Source: Roseibium sp. TrichSKD4
GTDB lineage: Bacteria > Pseudomonadota > Alphaproteobacteria > Rhizobiales > Stappiaceae
Assembly: GCF_000148725.1 (NCBI RefSeq)
Contig: NZ_GL476320.1
Location: 289,698-353,697, forward strand
DNA length: 64,000 nt
Direction: 5' to 3'
Below are positions 1 through 61,845 of this stretch, piece by piece (within the stretch, counting starts at the first letter, position 1; each line of letters begins with the position of its first letter). A program made the translations under genes and the position numbers. Under the pieces are notes generated by a model. That model was not told where the DNA came from. It ran no database searches and saw only the letters and a program-made list of their open reading frames with translations.

Positions 1-576
1 GCGTGCCATGTTCTTCACCCGCACGTGCTTGATCATGTCGAGAGCGCCAGATGCGGATTTGGCCAGAACCGGCCCTTCTTCTGGGGCGTGGCGTTCCGTC
101 GTGACCACTGCGTCTGCATCAAGGGCGACAGCTGAGCGCAAAATCGCTCCAACATTATGTGGATCGGTGACCTGATCCAGCGCCAGCACAAGCCGCGCAC
201 CTTTCAAGTGCTCCGGGCCATAAGCGGGTAGGGGATCGGCTTCCAGAATAACACCTTGATGCACCGCATCACGCGTCACCATCTTATCAAGCGCGCGTGG
301 AGCCAGTGTTTCTATGGGCACGTCGACTACAACGTCGCGCTCGGCTAGTCGGCGTTGTGCGTTCTCCGTTGCATAAAGCTTCATCCGCTTTCGTTCGGTA
401 TTTGCGAAGGCTGCTTCCACCGTATGAAGACCATATAGAAGGATAGGGCCTTCCGGTGGCAGTCCGGGGCATCGTGGTGCGGGTTTCTTTGTCCATTTTC
501 CGGCACGCTTATTGTCGCGCGACGGACGATGGGGGCCTGATCGCTTGGAGCCGGCACTTTTCGTATTCTCGGTCAT
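1..576 (-). CDS. rlmB: 23S rRNA 2'-O-methyltransferase, TrmH/SpoU family (partial)
   Basis: The minus-strand frame opens at an ATG at 576 behind a good AGGAG site and runs off the left window edge after 192 codons, so the C-terminal part is missing. Residues 1-40 are a basic, low-complexity tail. Then comes the small substrate-binding domain (LYGLHTVEAAFAN near residue 48), followed by the start of the SPOUT methyltransferase domain (LALDQVTDPHNVGAILRSA near residue 129), which is diagnostic for TrmH-type enzymes. The family member in this genomic place usually methylates G2251 of 23S rRNA. Its position divergent from the tRNA-Tyr/tuf block is common in Hyphomicrobiales. The exact target nucleoside is inferred from family and context. 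Confidence 0.85.
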   Translation of the reverse strand, partial: MTENTKSAGSKRSGPHRPSRDNKRAGKWTKKPAPRCPGLPPEGPILLYGLHTVEAAFANTERKRMKLYATENAQRRLAERDVVVDVPIETLAPRALDKMVTRDAVHQGVILEADPLPAYGPEHLKGARLVLALDQVTDPHNVGAILRSAVALDADAVVTTERHAPEEGPVLAKSASGALDMIKHVRVKNMAR

Positions 577-1004
577 AGCGATCTCCTACTCCCAAATCCA
601 AAAGCTGGAAAGGTGACAGATGGCGATCCAGCCACCCAATACGGACGCCTTTGCCGGTTATCGAATTGATCAGCCGGTTTGAAGCCAGCAGAATCGGGCG
701 TTTTCGTCCGGTTTCACTTTTCCACATCGTGCTGCCCAAGGGGGAACCGAAACGGAATGTGTTGTGAAGAAACGTGACAATATGCGTCCAAAATGGCAGG
801 ATACCGGGACAAATAACAGTGTCTATCGGGCCGGTCGCGCAGTCTCGCGCCAGACCGCTGCATATTTTATGAACTTCTTCGCAAAAACGGCGTTGACACC
901 CAAGGTCCCTATCTGCATAACACGCGCCACGGGATTGCTCGCCCCACCAAGGCGGGCTCTTCGGTAAGCCATCCTGACCGCTTCGGCGTGAAGTAGGAAA
1001 AGAT
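577..1004. other. Intergenic region between rlmB and tRNA-Tyr
   Basis: This 428-base stretch lies between two divergent transcription units. Short open frames on both strands lack ribosome binding sites and recognisable protein sequence, so no gene is called. It holds the rlmB upstream region on the left and the strong promoter for the tRNA/tuf unit at about 893-921. Confidence 0.6.
893..921 (+). promoter_or_regulatory. Probable promoter for tRNA-Tyr/tRNA-Gly/tufA
   Basis: A perfect -35 hexamer TTGACA (893-898) is followed 17 bases later by CATAAC (916-921), which matches four of six -10 positions. Transcription would start near 928, about 77 bases before tRNA-Tyr. This is the best housekeeping promoter match seen upstream of the ribosomal block. 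Confidence 0.6.
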
Positions 1005-1089
1005 GGAGGAGTGCCCGAGTGGCTAAAGGGGGCGGACTGTAAATCCGCTGGCTATGCCTACGTTGGTTCGAATCCAACCTCCTCCACCA
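1005..1089 (+). tRNA. tRNA-Tyr(GUA)
   Basis: The seven-base acceptor stem GGAGGAG (1005-1011) pairs exactly with CTCCTCC (1079-1085), followed by discriminator A and an encoded CCA (1087-1089). The anticodon arm GCGGA-CTGTAAA-TCCGC places GTA in the loop. A long variable arm makes it a class II tRNA, as expected for bacterial tRNA-Tyr. It is the first gene of the tRNA/tuf transcript. Confidence 0.95.
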
Positions 1090-1111
1090 TCTTCCTTTTC
1101 AGGTCCGGTGC

Positions 1112-1185
1112 GCGGGTGTAGCTCAATGGTAGAGCAGCAGCCTTCCAAGCTGACGACGAGGGTTCGATTCCCTTCACCCGCTCCA
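1112..1185 (+). tRNA. tRNA-Gly(UCC)
   Basis: Acceptor strand GCGGGTG (1112-1118) pairs with CACCCGC (1175-1181), then discriminator T and encoded CCA (1183-1185). The anticodon loop contains TCC between the CAGC and GCTG arms. It lies 22 bases after tRNA-Tyr and 165 bases before tufA, so the three are probably co-transcribed. Confidence 0.95.
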
Positions 1186-1350
1186 TCATGGGTGCTGATC
1201 GGAGTATCTGGACGGAAGGCTCTTTCGCTCGGAAAATCCTGACATAAATAATGGGAGACAATTCGCCGTTTGGGGAAACTCATGGGCCGATGCGTGTCCC
1301 GCCGCGAGCCACTATCGATATAACCTCGTATTGGACAGAGAGCGACGCCG

Positions 1351-2541
1351 ATGGCGAAGGAAAAATTTGAGCGCAATAAGCCTCACGTCAACATTGGCAC
1401 GATCGGCCACGTTGACCACGGTAAGACTACGCTGACTGCAGCAATCACGATGACACTTGCTGAGGCAGGTGGTGCAGAAGCTAAGGCTTACGACGAAATT
1501 GACGGTGCTCCTGAAGAGCGTGCACGCGGCATTACGATTTCCACGGCACACGTTGAGTATGAGACGGAAAACCGTCACTACGCTCACGTTGACTGCCCGG
1601 GCCACGCCGACTACGTGAAGAACATGATCACCGGTGCAGCGCAGATGGATGGCGCTATCCTGGTATGTTCTGCAGCAGATGGCCCAATGCCGCAGACCCG
1701 TGAGCACATCCTGCTTGCGCGTCAGGTTGGTGTACCGGCACTTGTCGTGTTCATGAACAAGGTTGACCAGGTCGACGACGAAGAGCTTCTCGAGCTCGTC
1801 GAAATGGAAATCCGTGAGCTTCTGTCTTCTTACGAGTTCCCGGGCGACGACATTCCGATCGTCAAGGGTTCTGCACTTGCAGCAGTTGAGAACCGCGACG
1901 AAGCAATCGGCCGTGGTGCGATCCGTGAGCTGATGTCTCAGGTTGACGAATACATCCCGACCCCTGAGCGTCCGAAGGATCAGCCGTTCCTGATGCCGAT
2001 CGAAGACGTGTTCTCGATCTCTGGTCGTGGAACTGTTGTGACCGGTCGTGTTGAGCGCGGTGTGATCAACGTTGGTGAAGAAGTCGAGATCGTCGGCATC
2101 AAGGACACCGCGAAGACCACAGTTACCGGCGTTGAAATGTTCCGCAAGCTGCTTGATAGCGGTGAAGCAGGCGACAACATCGGCGCACTGATCCGCGGCG
2201 TTGCTCGCGAAGAAGTTGAGCGTGGCCAGGTACTTTGTAAGCCGGGTTCTGTTACCCCGCACACGAAGTTCAAGGCTGAGGCTTACATCCTTACGAAGGA
2301 AGAGGGTGGCCGTCATACGCCGTTCTTCACCAACTACCGTCCTCAGTTCTACTTCCGTACGACTGACGTGACCGGTGTTGTGTCTCTTCCGGAAGGCACT
2401 GAAATGGTGATGCCGGGCGACAACGTCTCTGTTGACGTTGAGCTGATCGTTCCGATCGCCATGGAAGATGGTCTGCGCTTCGCGATCCGCGAAGGTGGCC
2501 GGACCGTCGGCGCTGGCGTCGTCGCTTCCATCACTGAATAA
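1351..2541 (+). CDS. tufA: Elongation factor Tu, copy 1
   Basis: This 396-residue GTPase delivers aminoacyl-tRNA to the ribosome. The P-loop GHVDHGKT is at residues 19-26, switch [10 protein letters not shown] is near 81, and the NKVD guanine-specificity motif is near 136. Domains II and III complete the protein. It is preceded by tRNA-Tyr and tRNA-Gly and followed by tRNA-Trp and secE, as in the tRNA-tufB arrangement of enterobacteria. The start has a GAGAG site nine bases upstream. The coding sequence appears identical at the nucleotide level to the second copy at 18797-19987, while the flanks differ. Confidence 0.98.
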
Positions 2542-2549
2542 GTGATTTT

Positions 2550-2581
2550 ATCCACCGGGCCTGTTACCCGGTCCGGTGGAT
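2550..2581 (+). terminator. Hairpin after tufA (possible weak terminator)
   Basis: ATCCACCGG (2550-2558) pairs perfectly with CCGGTGGAT (2573-2581). Only a broken run of T follows (CTTCCTTGTT), so it may terminate partially or mark a processing site before tRNA-Trp. Function is inferred. Confidence 0.45.
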
Positions 2582-2653
2582 CTTCCTTGTTGGGGCTTGA
2601 ATTTTCAAAACCTGGCAAGTATCAGGAGCAAGGCTGACTAGTCAGCATCATGA

Positions 2654-2729
<76 letters not shown>

Positions 2730-2835
2730 TATTTGCTCTTGAAAGCAAACCCCCGAGGGGTTACATAGAGACCTCGGGTGAGGCGCGCGAACGATGAGTC
2801 GCGCGCCCACTCGTATTTAACAGACCGGAATCGGA

Positions 2836-3027
2836 ATGGCGAAGACCAATCCCCTTACTTTCATTCAGCAGGTTCGGTCCGAGGTGGCGAAAGTCACTTG
2901 GCCGACACGTCGGGAAACGGCAGTGACCACCGTCATGGTGTTCATCATGGTTGTTATTGCGTCGATTTTCTTCCTGCTTGCCGATCAGCTGATGGGCTGG
3001 GGTATCGGCTGGATGCTTGGTGTTTAA
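2836..3027 (+). CDS. secE: Preprotein translocase subunit SecE
   Basis: A 63-residue protein whose amphipathic N-terminal helix carries the family motif EVAKVTWPTRRE (residues 16-27). A single transmembrane segment covers about residues 33-58. This is the short, one-helix SecE typical of alphaproteobacteria; the enterobacterial protein has three helices. It stabilises SecY in the SecYEG channel. It lies between tRNA-Trp and nusG, as in most bacteria. Confidence 0.96.
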   Translation: MAKTNPLTFIQQVRSEVAKVTWPTRRETAVTTVMVFIMVVIASIFFLLADQLMGWGIGWMLGV

Positions 3028-3093
3028 GGTCGGCTCGCTGTAAAAGCGCCGCTGGGAACGCTCAGAAAAGAACAAGAAACGGAACTGAAAAAC

Positions 3094-3627
3094 ATGGCCA
3101 AGCGCTGGTACATTGTGCACGCCTATTCGAATTTCGAGAAAAAGGTCGCCGAGTCCATCCGCGAAAAGGCCGAGCAAAAAGGTCTTTCGGACCTCTTTGA
3201 AGAAATTCTTGTTCCGATGGAAAAGGTCACCGAAGTGCGCCGCGGCCGCAAGGTTGAAGCAGAGCGCAAATTCTTCCCGGGCTATGTTCTTGTGAAGATG
3301 GATATGACCAATGAGGCGTTTCACCTGATCAAGGACACTCCGAAGGTCACCGGCTTCCTTGGTGCGGATCAAAAACCGATCCCGATCCCGGAGCGCGAGG
3401 CGCTTCAGATCATCAATCAGGTGCAGGAAGGCGTTGATCGTCCGAAGCCGTCCGTCACCTTTGAAGTTGGTGAGCAGGTTCGTGTCTCCGATGGTCCGTT
3501 CGCGTCCTTCTCCGGTCTCGTTGAAGAGGTTGATGACGAGCGTGCTCGCTTGAAGGTGGCTGTGTCTATCTTTGGCCGTGCGACCCCGGTTGAATTGGAA
3601 TTCGGTCAGGTTGACAAGCTCGCCTGA
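3094..3627 (+). CDS. nusG: Transcription termination/antitermination factor NusG
   Basis: A 177-residue protein with an N-terminal NGN domain (starts [20 protein letters not shown], including the RWYIVH strand) and a C-terminal KOW domain near residues 125-177 ([18 protein letters not shown]). It binds the RNA polymerase clamp helices and links to Rho or ribosomal S10. It lies 66 bases after secE and 155 bases before rplK. Confidence 0.97.
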
Positions 3628-3782
3628 CTGTTGGCTGCTACGGTAGCTATCGTGCCTGTTCCGTTAAGGGCAGGGTAACTGGTGGCAGATTGGTTCGCTC
3701 TTCGCCGAGTGGACGGAAGATCACACCACCGCCTCCCGCAAAACTGGTGAGCCATCGCCAGTTTGCTTGAATGGAGATCATC

Positions 3783-4211
3783 ATGGCGAAAAAAATTGAA
3801 GGCTTCCTGAAGCTTCAGGTGCCGGCTGGGTCCGCGACCCCGTCTCCTCCAATCGGTCCTGCGCTGGGTCAGCGCGGTCTGAATATCATGGAATTCTGTA
3901 AAGCGTTCAACGCACAGACCCAGGATGTCGAGAAGGGCGCACCTTGCCCGACCGTGATCACATACTTCACCGACAAGTCTTTCACATTCGAAGTGAAGAC
4001 TGCACCGGTTTCCTTCTTCCTGAAGAAGGCTGCAAAGCTTCAAAAGGGTTCACAGACCCCTGGTCGCGGTACTGTCGGTTCCGTTTCCAAGGCTCAGGTC
4101 AAGGAAATTGCAGAAGCGAAAATGAAGGACCTGAACGCCAACGACATCGACGCAGCAATGCTGATGGTTGAAGGCTCCGCCCGGTCCATGGGCCTCGAGG
4201 TGACGGAGTAA
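3783..4211 (+). CDS. rplK: 50S ribosomal protein L11
   Basis: 142 residues starting [12 protein letters not shown]. The proline-rich N-terminal motif [15 protein letters not shown] (about residues 16-31) binds the GTPase-associated centre of 23S rRNA and is the site of PrmA methylation in the family. An in-frame ATG four codons upstream (3771) would leave the GGAG site inside the gene, so 3783 is chosen. First gene of rplK-rplA, with rplA five bases downstream. Confidence 0.97.
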
Positions 4212-4215
4212 GATC

Positions 4216-4911
4216 ATGGCGAAGATCGGAAAGCGTATCACAGAAGCCCGTGAGGGCATCGACCGCAACAAGACCTACGCGCTTGATGAAGCGCTGGGTC
4301 TTTTGAAAGGTCGCTCCAAGGTCAAGTTCGACGAGACCATTGAAGTTGCCATCAACCTCGGTGTTGACCCACGTCACGCTGACCAGATGGTCCGTGGCGT
4401 CTGCGTTCTGCCGAACGGTACAGGCAAAAACGTCAAGGTTGCCGTGTTCGCACGTGGCGACAAGGCAGAAGAAGCCAAGGCTGCCGGTGCTGACATCGTT
4501 GGTGCTGAAGAGCTGGTCCAGGAAGTTCAGGGTGGAAACATCGACTTCGATACCGTCATTGCTACTCCGGACATGATGCCGCTCGTTGGTCGTCTTGGTA
4601 AGGTTCTCGGCCCGCGCGGCATGATGCCGAACCCGAAGGTCGGAACCGTTACTCCGGACGTTGCCAAGGCAATCAACGACGCCAAGGGCGGTGCTGTTCA
4701 GTTCCGCGTTGAAAAGGCGGGTATCGTTCATGCTGGTATCGGCAAGGCGTCTTTTTCTGAAGACGCTCTGCAACAGAACATCAAGGCTTTCGTCGACGCA
4801 GTTCAAAAAGCCAAGCCAACCGGCGCCAAGGGCACTTACATGAAGCGCATTGCCGTTTCATCCACAATGGGCCCGGGCGTGAAGGTCGATCTGGCCAGCG
4901 TTGCTGAATAA
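4216..4911 (+). CDS. rplA: 50S ribosomal protein L1
   Basis: 231 residues with the L1 signature (about 120-140, containing [20 protein letters not shown]). It forms the L1 stalk and in many bacteria represses its own operon by binding the leader. The GGAG site overlaps the end of rplK, indicating translational coupling. Confidence 0.97.
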
Positions 4912-5220
4912 TCCGGTCTGACCGGAGAACAAGTTTCAGTTGGGTAGCCGACTGATTGATTTGGCGGTTCGCCGCCAAGTCACCCTGTCCGAGACTGCAG
5001 GTGCCGGGAAACCGGTTTAAGCTTATTCAGGCCTGCATAGATGGGTTAGAACCGAATTTCCCGCTTGGGCGGATAACCGGTTCGAACCAGGCCTTGCCGC
5101 GCAGCCTGCGTGTGCGAGGGGACAGGACCCTGAGCGTCGTTGCAGGCGTTCCCGGGTTCGGGAAACCTGCTGCGGCAAAGGCAAACCGATGACGGAAACG
5201 TTATCAACTGGAGAAGGCAA
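4912..5220 (+). promoter_or_regulatory. rplJL leader region with stable hairpins
   Basis: The 309 bases between rplA and rplJ hold no convincing gene. A seven-pair hairpin with a TTCG tetraloop (TTGGCGG at 4961-4967, CCGCCAA at 4972-4978) is followed by further GC-rich inverted segments at about 5003-5035 and 5145-5170. In many bacteria this leader binds the L10-(L7/L12) complex and represses rplJL translation. That role is inferred from position, and the L10-binding kink-turn was not proved. Confidence 0.5.
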
Positions 5221-5739
5221 GTGGAAAGAGCGGAAAAGCACGAGTTCGTGACGTCTCTCAACGCTGAGTTGGCTGACACCGGCGTTGTAGTCGTTGCGCA
5301 CTATGCAGGTCTTTCAGTTTCCCAGATGACTGCACTACGGTCTTCTGTTCGTGAAGCTGGCGGCACTGTGAAAGTCGCGAAAAACCGCCTTGTGAAACTT
5401 GCCCTTCAAGGCACGGAACTGGAGCACATTGCTGACCTTTTCCAGGGCCCGACCGCCCTCGTCTATTCCGAGGATCCGGTTGCAGCCCCGAAAGCAGCTG
5501 TGAACTTCGCCAAGGCAAACGAGAAGTTTGAAATCCTTGGTGGCGCTCTTGGTTCCACAAACCTGAACGCGGACGGGGTTAAATCCCTGGCCACCATGCC
5601 GTCTCTGGACGAGCTGCGTGGCAAGCTGGTTGGTCTCATCCAGACCCCGGCTTCCCGGATCGCTCAGGTTGTCAACGCGCCGGCCGGGCAGCTTGCTCGC
5701 GTCTTCAACGCGTACGCCGAGAAGGACAAGGCCGCATAA
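5221..5739 (+). CDS. rplJ: 50S ribosomal protein L10
   Basis: 172 residues if it starts at the GTG at 5221 (protein begins with an initiator, then [13 protein letters not shown]). This matches the family N-terminus and sits behind a GGAGAAGG site; a longer in-frame extension into the leader has no such support. L10 forms the base of the L7/L12 stalk. Its C-terminal helix (about residues 135-172) carries the L7/L12 dimers encoded by the next gene. Confidence 0.95.
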
Positions 5740-5799
5740 GGCGACCGAAACACTGTCATACAAAACCAACTTACTGGTTCGAACTAAAGGTACTGAAAA

Positions 5800-6177
5800 A
5801 TGGCTGATCTCGAAAAGCTCGTAGAAGAACTGTCCACACTGACTGTTATGGAAGCAGCTGAACTGTCCAAGCTTCTGGAAGAGAAGTGGGGCGTTTCCGC
5901 TGCTGCTCCTGTTGCTGTTGCTGCTGTTGCAGGCGGCGCTGATGCAGGTGCTGCTGCTGAAGAAAAGACTGAATTTGACGTTGTTCTGGCTTCTGCTGGC
6001 GACAAGAAAATCAACGTCATCAAGGAAGTACGCGCAATCACTGGTCTTGGCCTGAAAGAAGCCAAGGAACTCGTTGAGTCCGCTCCGAAGGCAGTCAAGG
6101 AAGCAGTTTCCAAGGACGAAGCTGAAGAGCTGAAGAAGAAGCTTGAAGAAGCTGGCGCTTCCGTAGAGCTGAAGTAA
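5800..6177 (+). CDS. rplL: 50S ribosomal protein L7/L12
   Basis: 125 residues. The N-terminal dimerisation domain (1-30) is joined by an Ala/Val/Gly-rich flexible hinge (about 33-55) to a C-terminal domain with the factor-binding motif [20 protein letters not shown]. It is strongly acidic, as in the family. Placed 60 bases after rplJ. Confidence 0.97.
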
Positions 6178-6198
6178 TCAGGGCTTAAAGCCCTATAG

Positions 6199-6224
6199 AC
6201 GGTCCCGGTCTCCGGGGCCGTTTT
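6199..6224 (+). terminator. Hairpin between rplL and rpoB (attenuator-like)
   Basis: ACGGTCCCGG (6199-6208) pairs over ten positions, one of them T-G, with CCGGGGCCGT (6212-6221) around a three-base loop, followed by only three further T residues. It resembles the partial terminator known in the rplL-rpoB gap of other proteobacteria, which lowers rpoBC transcription relative to rplJL. The remaining bases to 6442 show no gene. Confidence 0.55.
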
Positions 6225-6442
6225 CTGGCCCCGGCGGGTTTTCCCGTGTCCGGGGCTAAAGTCCCACTGGAGCACAGTGATGCCAAACTAGGTTTCAACG
6301 TGCCCTGGTCCCCATAGACCGGTCAGCCAAAAGTCTGGTTGATCAATTTTGGGGGACGGTTTTCCGAAGCGCCTGGATGAGGTTCATCCGATGACAAGGG
6401 GCGTTTCGGGAAGCCGTTACCCGGCCGATACGAGGAGCGACA

Positions 6443-10582
<4,140 letters not shown>

Positions 10583-10683
10583 TCCGGAAATTATGACAAA
10601 GACCGATTTGAGACTTGCAGAACGGGTTGAGGGAAGGGTGCCAGTCGGCATTCTTCCGACCCCTGCAGTGAAGGAGATGGACC

Positions 10684-13600
10684 ATGAATCATGAGGTCAT
10701 GAACCTGTTTAACCAACAGGCTCCGACGCAGACCTTCGATAATATCCGGATCTCGCTTGCGAGCCCGGAAAAGATCATGTCCTGGTCGTTTGGCGAAATC
10801 AAAAAGCCAGAGACCATCAACTACCGTACGTTCAAGCCTGAACGGGATGGTCTGTTCTGCGCGCGCATCTTTGGCCCGATCAAGGACTACGAATGTCTTT
10901 GCGGCAAATATAAGCGCATGAAATACAAAGGCGTTATCTGTGAGAAGTGTGGCGTTGAAGTCACCTTGTCTCGTGTGCGCCGTGAACGCATGGGCCACAT
11001 TGAACTGGCTGCGCCGGTTGCGCACATCTGGTTCCTGAAGTCCCTGCCAAGCCGTATCGGCCTTCTGCTCGACATGACGCTGAAGGATCTGGAACGCGTT
11101 CTCTACTTCGAGAATTATGTGGTTCTGGAGCCGGGTCTTACGCCGCTGAAGCAACACCAGCTTCTGTCGGAAGAAGACTACATCGCAGCTCAGGACGAGT
11201 ATGGCGAAGACGCATTCACCGCCATGATCGGCGCTGAAGCGATCCGCGAAATCATGATGTCCATGGATCTGGAGCGCATCAGCGAACAGCTCCGTCAGGA
11301 AATCGCGGAAGCCACAACCGAGCTGAAGCCGAAGAAGCTGGCCAAGCGCCTGAAGGTCATTGAGGCATTTATCGAATCCGGCAATCGTCCGGAATGGATG
11401 ATCATGACCGTTGTTCCGGTTATTCCGCCGGACCTGCGTCCGCTGGTTCCGCTTGATGGTGGCCGGTTTGCGACTTCCGATTTGAACGATCTGTATCGCC
11501 GCGTGATCAACCGGAACAACCGTCTGCGCCGCCTGATGGAATTGCGCGCTCCGGACATCATCATCCGGAACGAAAAGCGTATGCTTCAGGAGTCTGTTGA
11601 CGCCCTGTTTGACAACGGTCGTCGTGGCCGCGTCATCACCGGTGCCAACAAGCGTCCGCTGAAGTCGCTGTCTGACATGCTGAAAGGCAAGCAGGGCCGC
11701 TTCCGTCAGAACCTTCTTGGTAAGCGCGTCGACTATTCTGGTCGTTCGGTTATCACCGTGGGTCCTGAGCTTAAGCTACACCAGTGTGGCCTGCCGAAGA
11801 AGATGGCGCTTGAGCTGTTCAAGCCGTTCATCTACTCCCGTCTTGATGCGAAAGGGTTCTCCTCAACCGTCAAGCAGGCCAAGAAGCTGGTGGAGAAAGA
11901 GCGTCCGGAAGTCTGGGATATCCTTGACGAGGTGATCCGTGAGCACCCGGTTCTCTTGAACCGCGCGCCTACGCTTCACCGTCTTGGCATCCAGGCGTTC
12001 GAACCGACCCTGATTGAAGGCAAGGCGATCCAGCTACACCCGCTCGTCTGTTCGGCGTTTAACGCTGACTTTGACGGCGACCAGATGGCTGTTCACGTCC
12101 CGCTCTCGTTGGAAGCCCAGCTGGAAGCGCGGACGCTGATGATGTCCACAAACAACATTCTGCACCCGGCTAACGGTGGTCCGATCATCGTTCCGTCGCA
12201 GGATATCGTTCTTGGTCTCTACTATCTGTCGATCATGGCAGAGAAAGAGCCGGGCGAGGGCATGGCCTTCGGTGATATTGGTGAAATCCATCACGCTCTG
12301 GCTAACAACGTCATTACGCTGCACACCAAGATCAAGGGTCGTTTCAAGACTGTTGATGAGCATGGCAACGAAGTCTGTCAGATCGTAGAGACGACTCCGG
12401 GCCGGATGCTGATTGGTGAGCTGCTGCCGAAGCACTTTGAAGTGCCTTATGACGTGTGCAACAAGCTGATGACCAAGAAGGATATCTCCAAGATGATCGA
12501 CACGGTTTACCGTGCGTGCGGTCAAAAGGAGACGGTTATCTTCTGTGACCAGATCATGGGTCTCGGCTTCAAGAACGCATGTAACGCCGGTATTTCGTTC
12601 GGTATGGACGACATGGTTATCCCGGACACCAAACAGAAGCTGGTTTCCGATACATCAGCCATGGCGACCGAATACGAGCAACAGTACAACGATGGTCTGA
12701 TCACTCAGGGCGAGAAATACAACAAGGTTGTTGACGCCTGGGCGAAGTGTACCGACCGTGTTGCTGACGAGATGATGAAGCGGATTCAGGCGGTGGAATT
12801 CGACGAAGAATCCGGTCGCCAGAAGCAGATGAACTCAGTGTACATGATGTCCCACTCCGGGGCGCGTGGTTCACCACAGCAGATGAAGCAGCTGGCTGGT
12901 ATGCGTGGTCTGATGGCCAAGCCGTCCGGTGAGATCATCGAAAACCCGATTATCTCGAACTTCAAGGAAGGCCTGTCGGTTCTGGAGTACTTCAACTCCA
13001 CGCACGGCGCCCGTAAGGGTCTGGCTGACACCGCTTTGAAGACAGCGAACTCTGGTTACCTGACCCGCCGTCTCGTGGACGTTGCGCAGGATTCCATCAT
13101 CCTTGAACCGGATTGTGGATCAGAGCGTGGCATCACAGTGGCGCCAATCGTTGATGCCGGTAACGTCATCGCCTCTCTGGGCATGCGCGTTCTGGGTCGT
13201 ACGACCGCTGAAGACGTTTACAATCACCAGACCGGTGAAGTGATCGTTCCGAAGGGGCATTTGATCGACGAGAAGGACGTTGAAGTCATCGAGGCCGCCA
13301 AGGTTCAGCAGATCAAGATCCGTTCGGTTCTGACCTGTGAGACCGAGACCGGTGTGTGTGCGACCTGTTACGGTCGTGACCTTGCACGCGGTACGCCTGT
13401 GAACATGGGTGAGGCTGTTGGCGTTATCGCTGCTCAGTCCATCGGTGAGCCGGGCACTCAGCTGACCATGCGGACGTTCCACATTGGTGGTACGGCGCAG
13501 GTTGTCGATAGTTCGTTCATCGAGTCCAACGTTGACGGCCGGGTGAAGATCCGCAATCGGAGCGTCCAGCGCGACTCCGACGGCAATCTCATCGCCATGG

Positions 13601-22888: not shown

Positions 22889-23167
22889 GTGGCACGTTCT
22901 GTCTGGAAAGGTCCGTTTGTAGACGGTTACCTTCTGAAAAAAGCGGACAAGGTTCGCGAGTCCGGCCGCAACGAGGTCATCAAGACCTGGAGCCGCCGCT
23001 CAACGATCTTGCCTCAGTTTGTTGGACTGACATTTGGCGTTTACAACGGCCAAAAGCATGTCCCGGTACTGGTGTCTGAAGAAATGATTGGTCACAAGTT
23101 CGGTGAATTTTCTCCGTCTCGTACCTACTACGGACACGGCGCCGACAAAAAGGCTAAGAGGAAGTAA
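22889..23167 (+). CDS. rpsS: 30S ribosomal protein S19
   Basis: 92 residues starting at a GTG (reads [18 protein letters not shown] after the initiator), which matches the universal S19 N-terminus. Signature [23 protein letters not shown] near residue 32 is complete. Binds 16S rRNA in the 30S head with S13. Confidence 0.97.
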
Positions 23168-46830: not shown

Positions 46831-48249
46831 TCAGCCCAGATAAAACGTTGTCGCCATCAGGAAGAAGATCAATACGCCCAGAATGTCATTGGACGAGGTG
46901 ATGAACACGCCAATGGCCATAGCCGGGTCAATCCCGACCTTGTCGAGGATGATGGGCACGGTCGCGCCGACCATTACGGCCAGCGTCGTGACACAGAGCA
47001 GGGACAGCGACGTCGCCAGCGCCAGCTGGTGAGGGGCTTCAATCGGAACGACTTGCGAGACAATGAGCACCAGGCCAGCCAGAATCGTTCCTGCAATGGC
47101 TCCATTCACCAGCGCTGCTATGAGCTCTTTAAAGAGGCGGAACAAGATATCTCCGGACCAGATGGCTCCGGTCGCCAAGCCTTGAACAGCAACGGCTGAA
47201 GCCTGAAGCCCGGCGTTTCCAGCCATGGACATGGTGACGGGAATAAAGGCGGCGAGGATCGCGGCCTTTGCAAGTTGCTCTTCAAACGATCCGACAACCG
47301 TCGCAGCAACACTTGCGCCAATCAAACCGGTAAGCAGCCACGGCAAGCGTCCTTTGACGATCTTGAAGACCGTGTCGTCTGCCTTGGCTTCGCCAGAAAC
47401 ACCGCTCATCAACAACAAGTCTTCAGCAGATTCCTCAGAAGCTATTCGGCTGAGCTGCTTTGGCGTGACGCGGCCGATCAGCTGCCCGTCTGAACTGACA
47501 ACAGGCATTGTTCGCATATCTTTTCGGCGGGCAATGCGAAGCACTTCCTCCTGATCCATGTCTGCAGAAACGGCGATAAAATCGCGGTTCATGATGCTGG
47601 ACAGGAGCGCGCTGTTGTCGTTGAGCAAAAGCTTGCCCACTTCCACAGTGCCGGTCAGACGATTTTCATCGTCGAGCGCGTATATCGTGAAGATTTTTCG
47701 GATGCGATCGGATTCCTCTCGGATCTGCGCGATCGCGTCGCCAACGCTGCATGTCTCCGGAAGCGCCACGAACTTCCGCGCCATCACCCGCCCGGCGCTT
47801 TCCTCCGCATAGTTTTTGACGCCCTCAAGGCTGTCGATTGCCGGAAGGCGGGCAATCAGCTCTTCGGCAACATCGTCCGGAAACTCGTTGAGGACATCAA
47901 TCGCGTCTTCCGGGTCAAGGCCATGCAAAATGTCGCGAAACTGCTCGAGCGTTGCTTCTTCAAGAAGAGTGGAGCGGAACTCGGACCTGAGTTCGGCAAC
48001 GACCTTGATGGACGGATTGGAAGGCAGCCATTGAAACAGCTTCCGGGCCTGCTTCAAGCGCAGCCGCGTGAGCAACTGCATGACATCAACCGGATCCCAT
48101 TTCTTGAGGGTCTCGACCAGTTCCGCCCGCTGGTCGGCCTTGATCATCATGCGAATGTGCTGAAGTACATTCTCGTTTTCGTCGAGTGCCTCATTGGCCG
48201 GTTCACGTTGCCAGACCGGCATGGTTTCGCTCTCTGCGATCTGGTTCAT
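46831..48249 (-). CDS. mgtE: Magnesium transporter MgtE
   Basis: 472 residues. N-terminal MgtE_N helical repeats (about 30-150) precede two CBS domains (about 150-280; MARKFVALPETCSVGDAIAQ). Five membrane helices (about 305-470) include the selectivity motif SMAGNAGLQASAVAVQGLAT. A Mg-gated channel in the inner membrane. It follows the Anbu gene on the same strand by 103 bases; no M-box riboswitch was seen. Confidence 0.96.
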   Translation of the reverse strand: MNQIAESETMPVWQREPANEALDENENVLQHIRMMIKADQRAELVETLKKWDPVDVMQLLTRLRLKQARKLFQWLPSNPSIKVVAELRSEFRSTLLEEATLEQFRDILHGLDPEDAIDVLNEFPDDVAEELIARLPAIDSLEGVKNYAEESAGRVMARKFVALPETCSVGDAIAQIREESDRIRKIFTIYALDDENRLTGTVEVGKLLLNDNSALLSSIMNRDFIAVSADMDQEEVLRIARRKDMRTMPVVSSDGQLIGRVTPKQLSRIASEESAEDLLLMSGVSGEAKADDTVFKIVKGRLPWLLTGLIGASVAATVVGSFEEQLAKAAILAAFIPVTMSMAGNAGLQASAVAVQGLATGAIWSGDILFRLFKELIAALVNGAIAGTILAGLVLIVSQVVPIEAPHQLALATSLSLLCVTTLAVMVGATVPIILDKVGIDPAMAIGVFITSSNDILGVLIFFLMATTFYLG

Positions 48250-48352: not shown

Positions 48353-49084
48353 CTATTCGTCAAATTCTTCCATGGCGGCAAAACCCTCTCGCAGCTTGTC
48401 AGACCAGGCTTCAGACAGCTTTTGGAAGTAGGGGTCGTCCTGCTCAATCCGCTTGTAGCGCGATGTTGAAAAACTGTCGGTGTTGTAAAGCAGAAGATCG
48501 ATTGGAAGGCCGACAGACAGGTTGGAGCGGACGGTGGAATCGAAGGACAGGAGCACCATTTTGGCGGCTTCACCGAGCCGCATGTCCGGGCGTGTGACCC
48601 GGTCGAGAATGGGCTTGCCGTATTTGTGCTCGCCGATTTGCAGAAAAGGCGTGTCGTCCGAGACTTCAATGAAGTTTCCGGCGGAATAGACTTGGAAGAG
48701 CCTTGGTTCTTCGCCCTTGATCTGTCCGCCAAGGATAAAGGTCACGGAAAAGTTCTCGGCCTGGGCACCATGCGTTTCGCTGTCCACCCGCGCCACTTCT
48801 CGCACAGCGCTGCCCACAAGGCGGGCCGCCTGGAACATGGTGTCTACCGTCATCAAGGTTGGAGCTTCATCCCCGCCGAGAGAAATCTGCTCTGACAAAA
48901 GCGAAATGACCGCCTGTGTGGTCGCTAGATTGCCAGCCGACAAAAGGGTGATGACGCGTTCGCCTTCTCGCTCCCAAAAATGAAGTTTCCTGAAGGTGGC
49001 GATATTGTCCAATCCGGCATTCGTCCGGGTATCGGCGGCAAACACCAAACCGCGATCAAGTTTCAGACCAACACAATAGGTCAT
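48353..49084 (-). CDS. Anbu proteasome-type peptidase (COG3484)
   Basis: 243 residues starting MTYCVGLKLDRGLVFAADTR. Removal of Met would expose Thr as N-terminal nucleophile, with Asp18 (AADTRTN) and Lys33 (FRKLHFWE) completing a proteasome-like catalytic centre in precursor numbering. Anbu (ancestral beta subunit, also BPH) is related to HslV and proteasome beta subunits. Its physiological substrate is not established. It is the last gene of the ATP-grasp/alpha-E/transglutaminase operon, 90 bases after the transglutaminase. Confidence 0.93.
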   Translation of the reverse strand: MTYCVGLKLDRGLVFAADTRTNAGLDNIATFRKLHFWEREGERVITLLSAGNLATTQAVISLLSEQISLGGDEAPTLMTVDTMFQAARLVGSAVREVARVDSETHGAQAENFSVTFILGGQIKGEEPRLFQVYSAGNFIEVSDDTPFLQIGEHKYGKPILDRVTRPDMRLGEAAKMVLLSFDSTVRSNLSVGLPIDLLLYNTDSFSTSRYKRIEQDDPYFQKLSEAWSDKLREGFAAMEEFDE

Positions 49085-49174
49085 GCTGCACTCTCCGGCC
49101 CTTTAGGGCAGTTCATTCCTGTTCGAGAGCTAGCAAAGCAATTGCGGCGCGTCTATCGCAAACCAGCCGTTAGG

Positions 49175-49990
49175 TCATTGTTGTTGTTGATGTGCTGCTT
49201 GAAGCACATCGACTTCCACCTGCAGATTTTCTTCTGTTCCGCCAAGCTGGATGCCCCGAATGGGGGCGGCGGACCTAGAATCAAGACCTGTGGTGAGGCG
49301 GACATAACGGTCGGTCGGACAAATCTCGTTGGAGATATCGAAACCCACCCAGCCGAGATTAGGCAGATAGACTTCAGCCCAGGCATGATGGGCTTCAGAG
49401 GCTTGTTCATCTTCCAACAACAGGTATCCCGAGACATATCGAGCTGGCACACTTATTGAGCGGGCGGCGGCTATGAAGATATGCGCGTGATCCTGACAGA
49501 CACCTTCTCCAGAACTCAGAGCCGATGCGGCGGTGGAATGAGTGTCCGTGACCCCGATCTTGTACTCCACCTTCTCGCGGATGGCATGCATCAAGGCATG
49601 AAATCCTGAGAGCTGGTCGTCTTCACCCACGAGATTTGCAAGTCGTCGAATGGCTTGATTGCTTTTGGTCAGCGGGGTGACCCGCGTGAAAATGCGAACG
49701 GGAGCAGCCCCTTTTTCAAACCCCACAACACCGGCAGTATCCTGCGTTTCCACGGTTCCCGACGCGGTGATTTCGACCGTCTCGATGTTATCGTCACTGG
49801 AGACCATGTGCACGATGTTCTCGAACGCATCCCTGTAGCTGGTTGCGCGATCCATCCCACGAGCATCGATAGACCAGTCGACAACCTTCTGCCCCGCACA
49901 GTCCTGTGGTGTCAGACGCAGTTGCTGCATGGCATTGGCCAACGGCGAGTCATAGCGGTATCGGGTGGTATGGCGGATAGATAGATGCAT
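49175..49990 (-). CDS. Transglutaminase-like cysteine protease-fold protein
   Basis: 271 residues. An N-terminal beta-strand domain (Bact_transglu_N, about 1-85) precedes the transglutaminase core. The likely triad is Cys165 (GEGVCQDHAH), His202 (HHAWAEVYL) and Asp218 (GFDIS). No signal peptide, so cytoplasmic. In this operon type the enzyme is proposed to hydrolyse or form isopeptide bonds in the product of the ATP-grasp enzyme; that is inference. Twenty-one bases after the alpha-E gene. Confidence 0.92.
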   Translation of the reverse strand: MHLSIRHTTRYRYDSPLANAMQQLRLTPQDCAGQKVVDWSIDARGMDRATSYRDAFENIVHMVSSDDNIETVEITASGTVETQDTAGVVGFEKGAAPVRIFTRVTPLTKSNQAIRRLANLVGEDDQLSGFHALMHAIREKVEYKIGVTDTHSTAASALSSGEGVCQDHAHIFIAAARSISVPARYVSGYLLLEDEQASEAHHAWAEVYLPNLGWVGFDISNEICPTDRYVRLTTGLDSRSAAPIRGIQLGGTEENLQVEVDVLQAAHQQQQ

Positions 49991-50011
49991 GGCGATGATC
50001 CGGACCTCCGG

Positions 50012-50962
50012 TCAGGCAAAATTATAATCTTGGGACAGCTGGCTGGCGAAATTGTTGTTCTGAACAATGAAATCGCTCAGGAAGTCATGCAGTCCGTTGT
50101 GATAAATGTCCGACATGTCGGTATCGGAAAGCTCACTGCTGATCTTGTCTGCCATTTTGAGGCTCGGAAGGCTTTCGCCATAGTAGAGCCCTAGATCGTT
50201 GGCCGATCCGCTGATCCACTCATAACAATGCGCCAATGAACGTGGCATCTCCCGGCGCAGGATCAAAAACTCCGCAATGTTCTGAGCCGACAATTTGGCA
50301 TTGGGGTAGGCAAAGCGATAGCTGCGATGGCCGGACAAGGCGCGCAGAATACCTGTCCACTGATAGCGCTCCATCGAGCCGTCGCCAATCACATCATTAT
50401 CGGGGAGTAGGACCCAATACTGGGTGTTGAGGACGCGAGCTGTGTTGTCGACCCGCTCAACGAAATTGCCGAGTTGACTAAAGTAATAGCCGTCATCGCG
50501 CAAAAGAGTGTTGAGCAGCGCACCCCGGAACAAATGAGACCGCTGGCTGATCCAGGACAGGAATTCTGGCAGCCGGTCCCGCGTAATGGATTGCGGGTTT
50601 GTGTCCGAAAACTCGATCCAGGTGGTGTTGATCGCTTCCCAAAGTTCAGACGTGATGCTGGTGCGCACAGAGCGCGCATTATTGCGGGCAGCCTCAAGAC
50701 AAACCCGCACGCTGCACGGGTTGTCCTTGTCAAACACCATGTAGGAAATCACCCCTTTGGGAGATACTTCCTCGACCTTGGCCATATACATGTTTTCGCA
50801 GCCGGAACTGAGCAGCGCAAAGCGCCAGTCATCCAGCGAGTTTTGACCGCCATGCGCAACGATGGCGTTTCGATAGGCCACTTCCAGCAGCTTGGCGATG
50901 TTCATTGCGCGCTCGTGATAGCGCGACATCCAGAACAGGGAGGATGCTGTTCTTCCGAGCAT
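50012..50962 (-). CDS. Alpha-E domain protein
   Basis: 316 residues, almost wholly alpha-helical, with the family start MLGRTASSLFWMSRYHERAM and conserved acidic and Trp residues (DDWRFALLSSG near 42, LSGHRSYRFAYPNAKLS near 215). Biochemical function is unknown; it always accompanies circularly permuted ATP-grasp proteins and is sometimes fused to them. Starts four bases after the ATP-grasp stop. Confidence 0.92.
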   Translation of the reverse strand: MLGRTASSLFWMSRYHERAMNIAKLLEVAYRNAIVAHGGQNSLDDWRFALLSSGCENMYMAKVEEVSPKGVISYMVFDKDNPCSVRVCLEAARNNARSVRTSITSELWEAINTTWIEFSDTNPQSITRDRLPEFLSWISQRSHLFRGALLNTLLRDDGYYFSQLGNFVERVDNTARVLNTQYWVLLPDNDVIGDGSMERYQWTGILRALSGHRSYRFAYPNAKLSAQNIAEFLILRREMPRSLAHCYEWISGSANDLGLYYGESLPSLKMADKISSELSDTDMSDIYHNGLHDFLSDFIVQNNNFASQLSQDYNFA

Positions 50963-50966
50963 ATGA

Positions 50967-52390
50967 TCAGTCCTCCAGAACCCAGGTGTCTTTGGTCCCG
51001 CCGCCCTGACTGGAATTGACCACCAGCGAGCCTTTCTTAAGGGCGACGCGGGTTAGGCCGCCGGGCGTGATCCGGACACGGTCGCCGATCAGGACGAAGG
51101 GCCGCAAATCGACATGGCGCGGGGCAACGCCGGAGGCAACATGTGTCGGGCAAGCCGACAGCGCGAGGGTCGGCTGAGCAGTATAGTTGGAGGGGTTGGC
51201 TTCCAGAACCTTGCGGAAATCGGCAATCTGCTTCTTTGAGGCGGTCGGTCCGATCAGCATTCCATAGCCGCCAGACCCGTGAACCTCCTTGACGACAATG
51301 TTTTCCAGATTGTCGAGCACATAGGCAAGATCATCTTCCCGGGCACAGTTCCATGTTGGCACGTTCTTCAGGATCGGTTTCTGACCCGTATAGAACTCGA
51401 TGATTTCCGGCACATAGGCATAGATCGCCTTGTCATCGGCAATGCCGGTTCCCGGAGCGTTGCAGATGGTGACATTGCCTGCGCGATACGCATCGAAAAG
51501 ACCGGGAACACCCAGCATGGAATCTGGCTGGAAGGTGAGGGGATCGAGAAACGCATCATCGATGCGCCGATAAATGACGTCGACCTGCTTCGGTTTGCGC
51601 GTTGTGCGCATGAAAACCTTGCCTTCATCGACGAAGAGGTCACGACCTTCGACCAGTTCCACACCCATGGAATCGGCCAAAATGCATGTTCAAAATAGGC
51701 AGAGTTGTAGATGCCCGGTGTCAGGACAACGACGGTCTGGTTGGACTTGGATTGATCCGGGCCAACGCTTTCGAGCGTCTGACGGAGTGAATCCGGATAA
51801 TGCTCGACCGGTGCAACGCGATGGATTTCAAACAGTTCCGGGAACATCCGCATCATGGTTTCCCGGTTTTCCATCATGTAGGAAACACCGGACGGGGTGC
51901 GAGTGTTGTCCTCCAGAACATAGAAGTCATCTTTCCCGACACGGACAAGATCCGTTCCGATGATGTGGGCATACACCTTGCGGGCCGGTGTGAAGCCAAC
52001 CATCTCCGGCAGGAAAGCCTCATTCTGGATGATCAGATCTGCCGGAATGCGCCCCGCCCGGATAATCTCCTGACGGTGATAAATGTCATGGAGGAAGGCA
52101 TTTAGCGCTCGAACCCGTTGATCAATGCCTGCGGACAGGCGGCGCCATTCTGAGGCAGACAAAATTCGCGGAATTGGATCGAACGGGATCAGACGTTCCG
52201 TAGCTTCATTTGACCCATAGACCGCAAAAGTAATTCCGAGACGGCGGAAAATTGTTTCCGCTTCCCGATTTTTCTTCTTCAGGAAATTTGGTGGTTTGGA
52301 GTTCAGCCAGTCTTCAAGCTTTGAGTAAGCAGGGCGGGACATCCCCGCGTCGTCGAGCATTTCATTGAAAAACGTTCGATCAACAGACAT
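50967..52390 (-). pseudogene. Circularly permuted ATP-grasp protein, frameshifted
   Basis: Intact length would be about 474 residues. The first frame runs from ATG 52390 (GGGAGA site; MSVDRTFFNEMLDDAGMSRP) to about residue 237 ([14 protein letters not shown]), then changes sense. The family continuation, [20 protein letters not shown], resumes in another frame through to the stop at 50967. The break lies at a run of four T (plus-strand AAAA 51679-51682) where five would keep frame. Family members (DUF404/407, CP_ATPgrasp_1) are proposed peptide or amide ligases. Either a real inactivation or a sequencing error. Confidence 0.88.
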
Positions 52391-52691
52391 GGCATCTCCC
52401 GGTTCGTATTAGTACCAAGGGTAAACATGACAGAGGGAGAAATAGTTTCAAGCTCTTTTGTTGAGCGTCTCTGCATGTCTTTTGGGCATCGATTGGGGAG
52501 TTACAATAGCTCTGTTTTCTGAATACAGTTTCAGCAGCGCGACGATTTGATGTTGAATCGCGACATCTGTGCGGACGTGGCGGGTGCCTTGGCCGAGAGA
52601 AGAAAAAATCAGACGCCTTCTCCTATCTGCTGACTTTGCTTGTAATATTCTGCGTGCTACCACCCTCGGCAAATAGAGGTTGGAGAACGCA
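52391..52691. other. Intergenic region between ATP-grasp operon and pccB
   Basis: These 301 bases separate two divergent units and should hold both promoters. A weak minus-strand open frame of 74 codons (52448-52672) has no ribosome binding site or recognisable sequence and is not called. A TAATAT at 52643-52648 could be a pccB -10, but no good -35 accompanies it. Confidence 0.45.
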
Positions 52692-60937: not shown

Positions 60938-61845
60938 ATGACTGATATTACCAAACCCAATTCTCGCAGCTCGACACTTGCAGTGCTGGCCATGGTCGGA
61001 GCAGGGGCATCCTTTGCTCTTATCAACGGCGCGCTGCAAGCCTCCACCATGCAGCTGGGCGTCGCATCAACGACAGCAGCCTTCTGGCAATATGCGTTCG
61101 GCCTGTTGGTTGCCATTCCCTGGGTGCTTCGCGGTGGTCCGTCCGCTGTCAAGACCGATCAAATCGGCTGGCACCTGCTGCGGGCGGTTCTGGCGGTCAT
61201 CGGTATCCAGCTTTGGGTGGCCGGGTTGGCGAAAGTGCAAATCTGGCAGGCCATCGCCCTGGTCATGACCTCACCATTCTTCGTGATCATCGGCGCAAAA
61301 CTGTTTTCCGTGAGCGGGTGGGCTGGGTGCGCTGGCTGGCCACCATTGCCGGGTTCTCCGGAGGTATGCTGATCCTGGAGCCATGGACGGAGAGTTTTCA
61401 TTGGGGTGCCATACTGCCGGTGGGGGCAGCTGCGTTCTGGGCTGGAACGTCACTTGTGACCAAGAAGCTGACACGTACTGAAGCGGCGGATACGATTACG
61501 CTTTATCTCCTCTTGTTGCTGACACCGGTCAATGCCTTCCTGGCCTTCGGAAACGATGGAGTGATGGTTTCCGGTCTGTCCATGTGGTTGCTGCTCGGCG
61601 CAGGTGGGCTGACTGTACTGGCTAACTATTTGCTGACACTGGCTTACCAAAAGGCCGATGCTGCCTTCATACAACCGTTTGATCACCTCAAGCTGCCATT
61701 GAACATTGCTGTTGGCTGGTTCGCCTTCGGCTTTGCCCCATCTGGTGCCTTCTGGCCGGGTGCCATTATTATCGTAGGGGCATCGCTGTTGGTCATGGTG
61801 GACGAAACCAGAGCAACCCGCAAAGCCCGGATGGCAGATGCTTGA
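60938..61845 (+). pseudogene. ribN: Riboflavin transporter RibN (EamA/DMT family), frameshifted
   Basis: Intact length would be about 302 residues with ten membrane helices (two EamA repeats). The first frame (TLAVLAMVGAGASFALINGA onward) reads to FFVIIGAKLF. The second frame then supplies FRERVGWVRWLATIAGFSGG to the end. The join is at a run of four T (61304-61307), where a fifth T restores KLFFRERVGWVRW. FMN riboswitch control and EamA fold identify the RibN type of riboflavin importer known in rhizobia. Unless the base is a sequencing error, only helices 1-4 would be made. Confidence 0.85.

What the first reader, a model, noticed from the sequence alone, without database searches (positions are those of the whole stretch)
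48353..52390. Anbu peptidase encoded with ATP-grasp, alpha-E and transglutaminase genes
Four tightly packed minus-strand genes (gaps of 4, 21 and 90 bases) encode a circularly permuted ATP-grasp ligase, a helical alpha-E protein, a transglutaminase-fold enzyme and Anbu, a proteasome ancestor with predicted Thr2/Asp18/Lys33 catalytic residues. Comparative genomics (the amidoligase literature) proposes that such sets make and cleave an unknown peptide or amide product or tag, but the product is not established. This is the least understood coherent system in the window. mgtE follows on the same strand after 103 bases and could be part of the transcript.
Basis: partly seen in the sequence, partly recalled or inferred. 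Interest (0 to 1): 0.78.

Follow-up and report, generated by a model that had tools for sequence, protein, structure and literature searches.

The report
Anbu amide-ligase operon, one gene frameshifted
A bacterium related to marine Roseibium carries a widespread but still unexplained four-gene set, with two probable bond-breaking enzymes beside a probable bond-making pair, that looks like a dedicated system for making and undoing an unknown amide compound; here the bond-making gene is interrupted by what is probably a sequencing slip.

Summary
The genes are real and correctly named: ATP-grasp, alpha-E, transglutaminase-like, Anbu; minus strand, 48353-52390; stated gaps; Anbu and transglutaminase catalytic residues intact. 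All 13 nearest loci have one frame. A second gene split at a TTTT run (EamA, 61304-61307) and ordinary conservation of both halves favour a sequencing slip; unproven without reads. The set is the published Anbu operon: 67 of 80 loci keep its order. In 249 Pseudomonadota genomes ATP-grasp and alpha-E occur in exactly the same 132; Anbu in 85 (84 of those), DUF2126 in 71 (all among them), TGase-N in 128 of the 132. So the core is an ATP-grasp/alpha-E pair, naturally fused in a paralogue; Anbu is an optional addition. Alpha-E is an internal duplication with two ER motifs; no convincing relative among solved structures. Sigma-54 boxes precede 15 of 59 operons, none of the 14 Stappiaceae tested. 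mgtE adjoins only in Roseibium (8 of 80). Best reading: a two-subunit amide ligase with dedicated hydrolases. Product unknown. New member of a known kind.

The parts
51680..52390 (-). N-terminal part of the circularly permuted ATP-grasp (type 2) gene; its ORF runs on out of frame to 51368
   Evidence: PF14403 positions 1-163, E 2.4e-68; 80.6-83.1% identical to L001-L008
50967..51680 (-). C-terminal part of the same ATP-grasp gene, in another frame
   Evidence: PF14403 positions 164-374, E 1.1e-92; 89.5-93.7% identical to L001-L008
51679..51682 (-). TTTT run at or next to which the reading frame is lost (one-base frameshift)
   Evidence: coding-frame scan changes frame at 51684-51688; context printed; 13 of 13 nearest relatives uninterrupted
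50012..50962 (-). alpha-E protein, 316 aa, internal duplication with two ER motifs (E17-R18, E169-R170)
   Evidence: PF04168 E 1.1e-80; hhalign of the two halves E 6.2e-13; AlphaFold2 model pLDDT 91.6, pTM 0.90
49175..49990 (-). transglutaminase-like protein, 271 aa, C165/H202/D218
   Evidence: PF01841 E 7.5e-24, PF08379 E 2.2e-22; C in 37, H and D in 38 of 38 aligned
48353..49084 (-). Anbu, 243 aa, nucleophile Thr2 (Thr1 after Met removal), Asp18, Lys33
   Evidence: PDB 5nyj E 1.1e-100; T2, D18, K33 and G51 in 39 of 39 aligned
52423..52451 (-). possible promoter TTGAAA-17-ATGTTT, 33-61 nt before the ATP-grasp start; the second box is weak
   Evidence: same place as TTGACA boxes in 6 of 8 Roseibium loci, L002-L007 (alignment); not found by the stricter consensus scan
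46831..48249 (-). mgtE; neighbour, probably not a member
   Evidence: TIGR00400; orthologue in 8 of 80 loci, all Roseibium

Best explanation
This is the Anbu operon of an unnamed bacterium of the Stappiaceae (nearest: Roseibium). Most likely ATP-grasp and alpha-E form one amide (peptide-like) ligase: ATP-grasp activates a carboxylate as acyl phosphate, and alpha-E supplies part of the complex, perhaps the site for the second substrate. The transglutaminase-like thiol enzyme and, where present, the Anbu Ntn-hydrolase trim, transfer or hydrolyse the amide product. In some relatives, but probably not in the Stappiaceae, the set has a sigma-54 promoter of the kind used in nitrogen limitation. Shown here: families, catalytic residues, co-inheritance, natural ATP-grasp/alpha-E fusion, alpha-E duplication, sigma-54 boxes in relatives. 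Inferred: the physical complex, the chemistry, the order of steps and any link to nitrogen in this organism. The ATP-grasp frameshift is most likely a sequencing or assembly slip, so the operon is probably functional; this was not verified.
For: ATP-grasp and alpha-E in the same 132 of 249 genomes; alpha-E directly downstream of ATP-grasp on the same strand in 57 of 57 loci where both were taken as complete, gap at most 30 nt in 44. A paralogue carries both domains in one chain, shown by Pfam for L216 (800 aa), others by profile. Anbu in 85 genomes, 84 of them with alpha-E and 72 within 12 kb of it. TGase-N in 128 of 132 alpha-E genomes against 2 of 117 others. Catalytic residues kept. ATP-grasp profile matches 3n6x over positions 2-468 of 468, E 1e-241. 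In print: the ATP-grasp of a Yersinia Anbu operon releases phosphate from ATP (PMC6376114, abstract and passages) and Thr1 of Pseudomonas Anbu reacts with proteasome inhibitors (PMC5666114, passages). Sigma-54 box upstream in 15 of 59, shuffle mean 0.52, maximum 3 in 300 shuffles; a related set depends on NtrC in Burkholderia (PMC5491218, passages).
Against: No substrate or product is known. Anbu showed no activity on tested peptides, and co-expression pull-downs found no specific Anbu complex with the other operon proteins (PMC6376114, passages). Fuchs et al. judge a peptide-synthesis role less likely (PMC5666114, section 14). My model of ATP-grasp with alpha-E as one chain failed (pLDDT 70.3, pTM 0.53). 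Anbu is absent from 48 of 132 alpha-E genomes and was not within 12 kb of alpha-E in 13 of 85 Anbu genomes, one of which has no alpha-E at all. No NtrC-like palindrome was enriched. In this window the ATP-grasp frame is broken.
Confidence: 0.5

Rival explanations
1. Anbu is a compartmental protease for general protein turnover under nitrogen limitation; the other genes modify or mark its substrates.
For: Argued by Fuchs et al. from ring shape, inhibitor binding and S1 pockets (PMC5666114, section 14); nitrogen-limitation expression cited there and in PMC6376114; COG3484, proteasome-type protease, is listed in a predicted sigma-54 regulon of alpha-, beta- and gamma-proteobacteria (PMC12316311, one passage).
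Against: Anbu is reported not to be associated with an AAA+ ATPase in genomes (PMC5666114, passage; not tested here); no peptidase activity on tested substrates; ATP-grasp and alpha-E persist without Anbu in 48 of 132 genomes, so Anbu is not the purpose of the set.
Confidence: 0.2
2. A protein-tagging system: the ATP-grasp attaches a peptide or amino acid to proteins and Anbu or TGase removes it (proposal of Iyer et al. 2009, known to me only as described in PMC6376114 and PMC5666114).
For: A ligase family plus two hydrolase families in one operon.
Against: No modified protein is mentioned in the passages I saw. I did not search for short tag-like genes, so this is weak evidence.
Confidence: 0.2
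3. The frameshift is a true mutation and the operon is decaying in this strain.
For: The frame is broken in the given sequence. The N-terminal half is about two points less like the relatives than L008, a comparably distant relative, is (82.2 against 84.2% on average).
Against: The C-terminal half (92.1 against 92.0%), alpha-E (67.9 against 66.2), TGase (73.2 against 73.2) and Anbu (78.1 against 78.5) are as conserved as in L008; a second unrelated gene is broken at the same kind of run, which points to the data.
Confidence: 0.2
4. Programmed frameshifting makes two ATP-grasp products.
For: The two frames overlap and both halves are conserved.
Against: Both halves lie in one frame in 71 of the 72 loci where both were found; the exception, L078, is broken in all four genes. 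The run is only four T.
Confidence: 0.03

Closest known systems
Anbu operon (Iyer et al. 2009, not held; Fuchs et al. 2017 PMC5666114; Piasecka et al. 2018 PMC6376114)
   Same: same four families, the order given in PMC6376114; same Anbu active-site residues
   Different: ATP-grasp frame interrupted here; no sigma-54 box; mgtE downstream
Anbu structures 5nyj and 5nyf in the PDB
   Same: align over residues 1-242 and 2-242, E 1.1e-100 and 4.3e-100
   Different: not compared further
3n6x, deposited as putative glutathionylspermidine synthase (solved CP ATP-grasp)
   Same: family profile matches over 468 positions, E 1e-241
   Different: the deposited name does not establish the reaction; I read no paper on it
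Second amidoligase set: fused ATP-grasp-alpha-E, TGase-DUF2126 protein and TGase (e.g. L216); Burkholderia I35_5080-83 appears related
   Same: ATP-grasp, alpha-E and TGase domains
   Different: has DUF2126 and, in L216, no Anbu beside it; ATP-grasp and alpha-E in one chain

Membership tests
Anbu | proteasome-beta-like sequence with Thr1, Asp17, Lys32(33) in mature numbering | tested here: met
Anbu | open split-ring (lock-washer) assembly | not testable with these tools
   known for homologues (PMC5666114, PMC6376114, passages)
Anbu operon | ATP-grasp, alpha-E, TGase, Anbu in one direction and order | tested here: met
Anbu operon | all four genes intact | tested here: not met
   ATP-grasp split in two frames; cause unresolved
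Anbu operon | single transcript | not testable with these tools
   gaps of 4, 21 and 90 nt only
Circularly permuted ATP-grasp type 2 | PF14403 profile over the whole length | tested here: met
   positions 1-163 and 164-374, in two ORFs
Circularly permuted ATP-grasp type 2 | amide ligase activity | not testable with these tools
   phosphate release from ATP shown for a homologue only (PMC6376114)
Alpha-E (PF04168) | profile and ER motif | tested here: met
Transglutaminase-like | Cys-His-Asp | tested here: met
Sigma-54/NtrC-controlled operon | TGGC-N7-TTGC within 150 nt upstream | tested here: not met
   none in the window or in L001-L013; 15 of 59 operons overall
A known helical fold for alpha-E | structural relative in the PDB | tested here: inconclusive

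The most novel reading that the evidence does not exclude
ATP-grasp and alpha-E are two subunits of one uncharacterised amide ligase whose helical subunit arose by internal duplication and holds a pseudo-twofold, arginine-rich, ER-ER site for the second substrate; Anbu is not a general protease but a hydrolase or transferase dedicated to that ligase's product, which would place a close relative of the proteasome in small-molecule or peptide amide metabolism.
Probability: 0.3. Interest if true: 0.75.

Novelty: new member of a known kind. Interest (0 to 1): 0.42.

Why it matters
Anbu is a relative of the proteasome core whose function is unknown, and this operon is its usual context. The survey says where to look: at the product of the ATP-grasp/alpha-E pair, which exists without Anbu, rather than at Anbu as a general protease. 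The duplicated alpha-E gives residues to mutate. The frameshift warns that this particular sequence should not be taken as a working copy, or as evidence of loss, without checking reads.

Tried and rejected

Rows left out of alignments: A1 holds 65 of 73 alpha-E taken as complete, A2 38 of 70 TGase, A3 39 of 80 Anbu, A4 37 of 58 ATP-grasp. The 58 are not all intact ATP-grasp genes: 71 loci have both halves in one ORF, my filter missed some. The duplication control was six column-permuted decoys (one reversed, five shuffled), not unrelated helical families. The EamA frameshift was not compared with relatives.
Full report
What is in the sequence. [quoted passage not shown] The window comes from an unnamed bacterium whose nearest relatives are Roseibium: Anbu is 76-79% identical to L001-L008. 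Anbu keeps Thr2, Asp18 and Lys33, and the transglutaminase C165, H202 and D218. In the aligned relatives T2, D18 and K33 are present in 39 of 39 Anbu, H and D in 38 of 38 and C in 37 of 38 transglutaminases, the exception being L065.

The ATP-grasp gene is two ORFs in two frames, 51368-52390 and 50967-51680, which match the first and second part of the same profile (positions 1-163 and 164-374). A codon-usage frame scan of the window changes frame at 51684-51688, next to a TTTT run at 51679-51682. In L001-L013, 13 of 13, the same protein is one frame. Over the 80 loci both halves lie in one ORF in 71, in different ORFs only in L078, and were not both found in 8; L078 is a metagenome assembly broken in all four genes of the operon, and L040 has a split transglutaminase. 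Compared with L008, a comparably distant relative, the window's halves are on average 82.2 against 84.2% (N part) and 92.1 against 92.0% (C part) identical to the Roseibium set, and the other three genes differ by less than two points, so there is no clear sign of decay. A second gene of the window, an EamA transporter, is also split into overlapping ORFs (60938-61372 and 61213-61845, both PF00892), and the frame scan changes at 61303/61304, where another TTTT run lies (61304-61307). I did not compare that gene with relatives. The only other same-strand frame change without a gap that I saw in the scan, at 23158/23159, is two complete ribosomal genes. Two breaks at the same kind of run in 64 kb suggest sequence error rather than biology, but without reads I cannot exclude real mutations. 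Intact copies exist in all 13 nearest loci.

Conservation of the set. The Anbu search kept the best 80 of 585 confirmed loci. Of these 80, 67 have all four genes in the same order and strand. Of the other 13, five begin within about 1.7 kb of the Anbu gene, too short for the whole set (L019, L046, L047, L059, L065), two have the trio divergent from Anbu (L015, L017), five show no matching transglutaminase (L066, L069, L074, L075, L077; in L074 the contig is short) and one shows Anbu alone (L076, 3.4 kb upstream held). An mgtE orthologue occurs in 8 of 80 loci, all Roseibium, and 68 of the 80 had at least 3 kb of sequence beyond Anbu. In the eight Roseibium loci PccB upstream and mgtE, ATP12 and HAD downstream are also kept, which points to vertical inheritance there.

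Which part is the core. In 249 Pseudomonadota genomes drawn by the tool (completeness not told), alpha-E is found in 132, ATP-grasp in 132, and these are the same genomes. Anbu is in 85, 84 of them with alpha-E, the exception being G104 (Fisher P 2e-30, not corrected for relatedness). DUF2126 is in 71, all with alpha-E; within alpha-E genomes no association of Anbu with DUF2126 was seen (P 0.28). The transglutaminase N-domain is in 130: 128 of the 132, and 2 of the 117 others. Anbu lies within 12 kb of an alpha-E copy in 72 of 85 genomes: one search counted 71 from a listing that was cut, and one search added G159. Of the other 13, six have them more than 200 kb apart on one contig, six on different contigs (a contig break cannot be excluded) and G104 has no alpha-E. 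In 57 of 57 loci where both were taken as complete, alpha-E directly follows ATP-grasp on the same strand, at most 30 nt away in 44 (in at least three the ATP-grasp end was cut short by the alignment, so those gaps are overstated). A paralogous protein carries both domains in one chain (L216, 800 aa: PF14403 then PF04168; others), next to a protein with TGase and DUF2126 domains, which Pfam calls a putative amidoligase, and a further TGase. The natural fusion and the identical distribution make ATP-grasp plus alpha-E the unit, and Anbu an optional addition.

Regulation. The box TGGC-N7-TTGC lies within 150 nt upstream of the ATP-grasp start in 15 of 59 operons, in 0 of 59 further upstream (-420 to -151), in 1 of 59 on the other strand, and on average in 0.52 in shuffles (maximum 3 in 300 shuffles). 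The 15 include close relatives, so they are not 15 independent events; start codons were chosen by script. None is in the window or in L001-L013. There six of eight Roseibium loci (L002-L007) have TTGACA at the same place, and the window has TTGAAA-17-ATGTTT at 52451-52423, with a weak second box. NtrC-like palindromes were not enriched. In print: in Burkholderia cenocepacia a related trio with a large TGase protein has values of -6.0 to -9.4 in the table for an ntrC mutant, which I take as fold changes (PMC5491218, passages); a Bradyrhizobium table of RpoN sites includes a CP_ATPgrasp protein with TGGCCCGGCCCTTGC (PMC13207237, passage); COG3484 is in a predicted sigma-54 regulon (PMC12316311, passage); nitrogen-limitation expression in P. 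putida is cited in PMC5666114 and PMC6376114. So the nitrogen link is already known for other lineages and is not supported by this window's own upstream region.

How it probably works. From family knowledge (recalled, and stated in PMC6376114), ATP-grasp enzymes make an acyl phosphate and then an amide. A homologue of this one releases phosphate from ATP (PMC6376114). The simplest reading is a two-subunit amide ligase with one or two dedicated amide-cleaving or -transferring enzymes. The complex, the substrates and the direction are inferred; my attempt to model ATP-grasp with alpha-E as one chain failed (pLDDT 70.3, pTM 0.53). Published negatives weigh against it: no Anbu activity on standard peptides and no specific pull-down of operon partners by Anbu, and Fuchs et al. 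prefer a protease role. A pure degradation role does not explain why ATP-grasp and alpha-E occur without Anbu in 48 of 132 genomes.

Verdict. A genuine, widespread and still unexplained system, already described as the Anbu operon; this copy is a new member with a probable sequence error. The additions are the nesting of its parts, the alpha-E duplication, the lineage-specific promoters and the frameshift.

Noticed in passing
window 60938-61845: EamA-family transporter gene split into two overlapping ORFs, the frame changing at a TTTT run (61304-61307), like the ATP-grasp gene.
   Followed up: partly
L161, L163-L167, L169: In 7 of 13 examined loci where Anbu lies away from the operon it sits beside a MutS gene (Pfam on the L167 copy).
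   Followed up: partly
L223 (Acidithiobacillus caldus megaplasmid) 1-12714: Anbu, a transglutaminase-family protein and a CP ATP-grasp lie on the same stretch as annotated glnL and ntrC, nitrogen regulators.
   Followed up: no
L078 6772-10725: Breoghania metagenome assembly with frame breaks in all four operon genes, suggesting assembly error.
   Followed up: no
MT835738.1 16860-17690 (L220): A record named Bacteriophage sp., UNVERIFIED and unannotated, carries a 27.6% alpha-E relative; may be bacterial DNA.
   Followed up: no
L171-L174, L197, L198: Loci combining Anbu, separate ATP-grasp and alpha-E, a fused ATP-grasp-alpha-E, TGase and a TGase protein of about 1100 aa in one cluster.
   Followed up: partly
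L065 221-1021: Transglutaminase next to Anbu has Val in place of the catalytic Cys.
   Followed up: no
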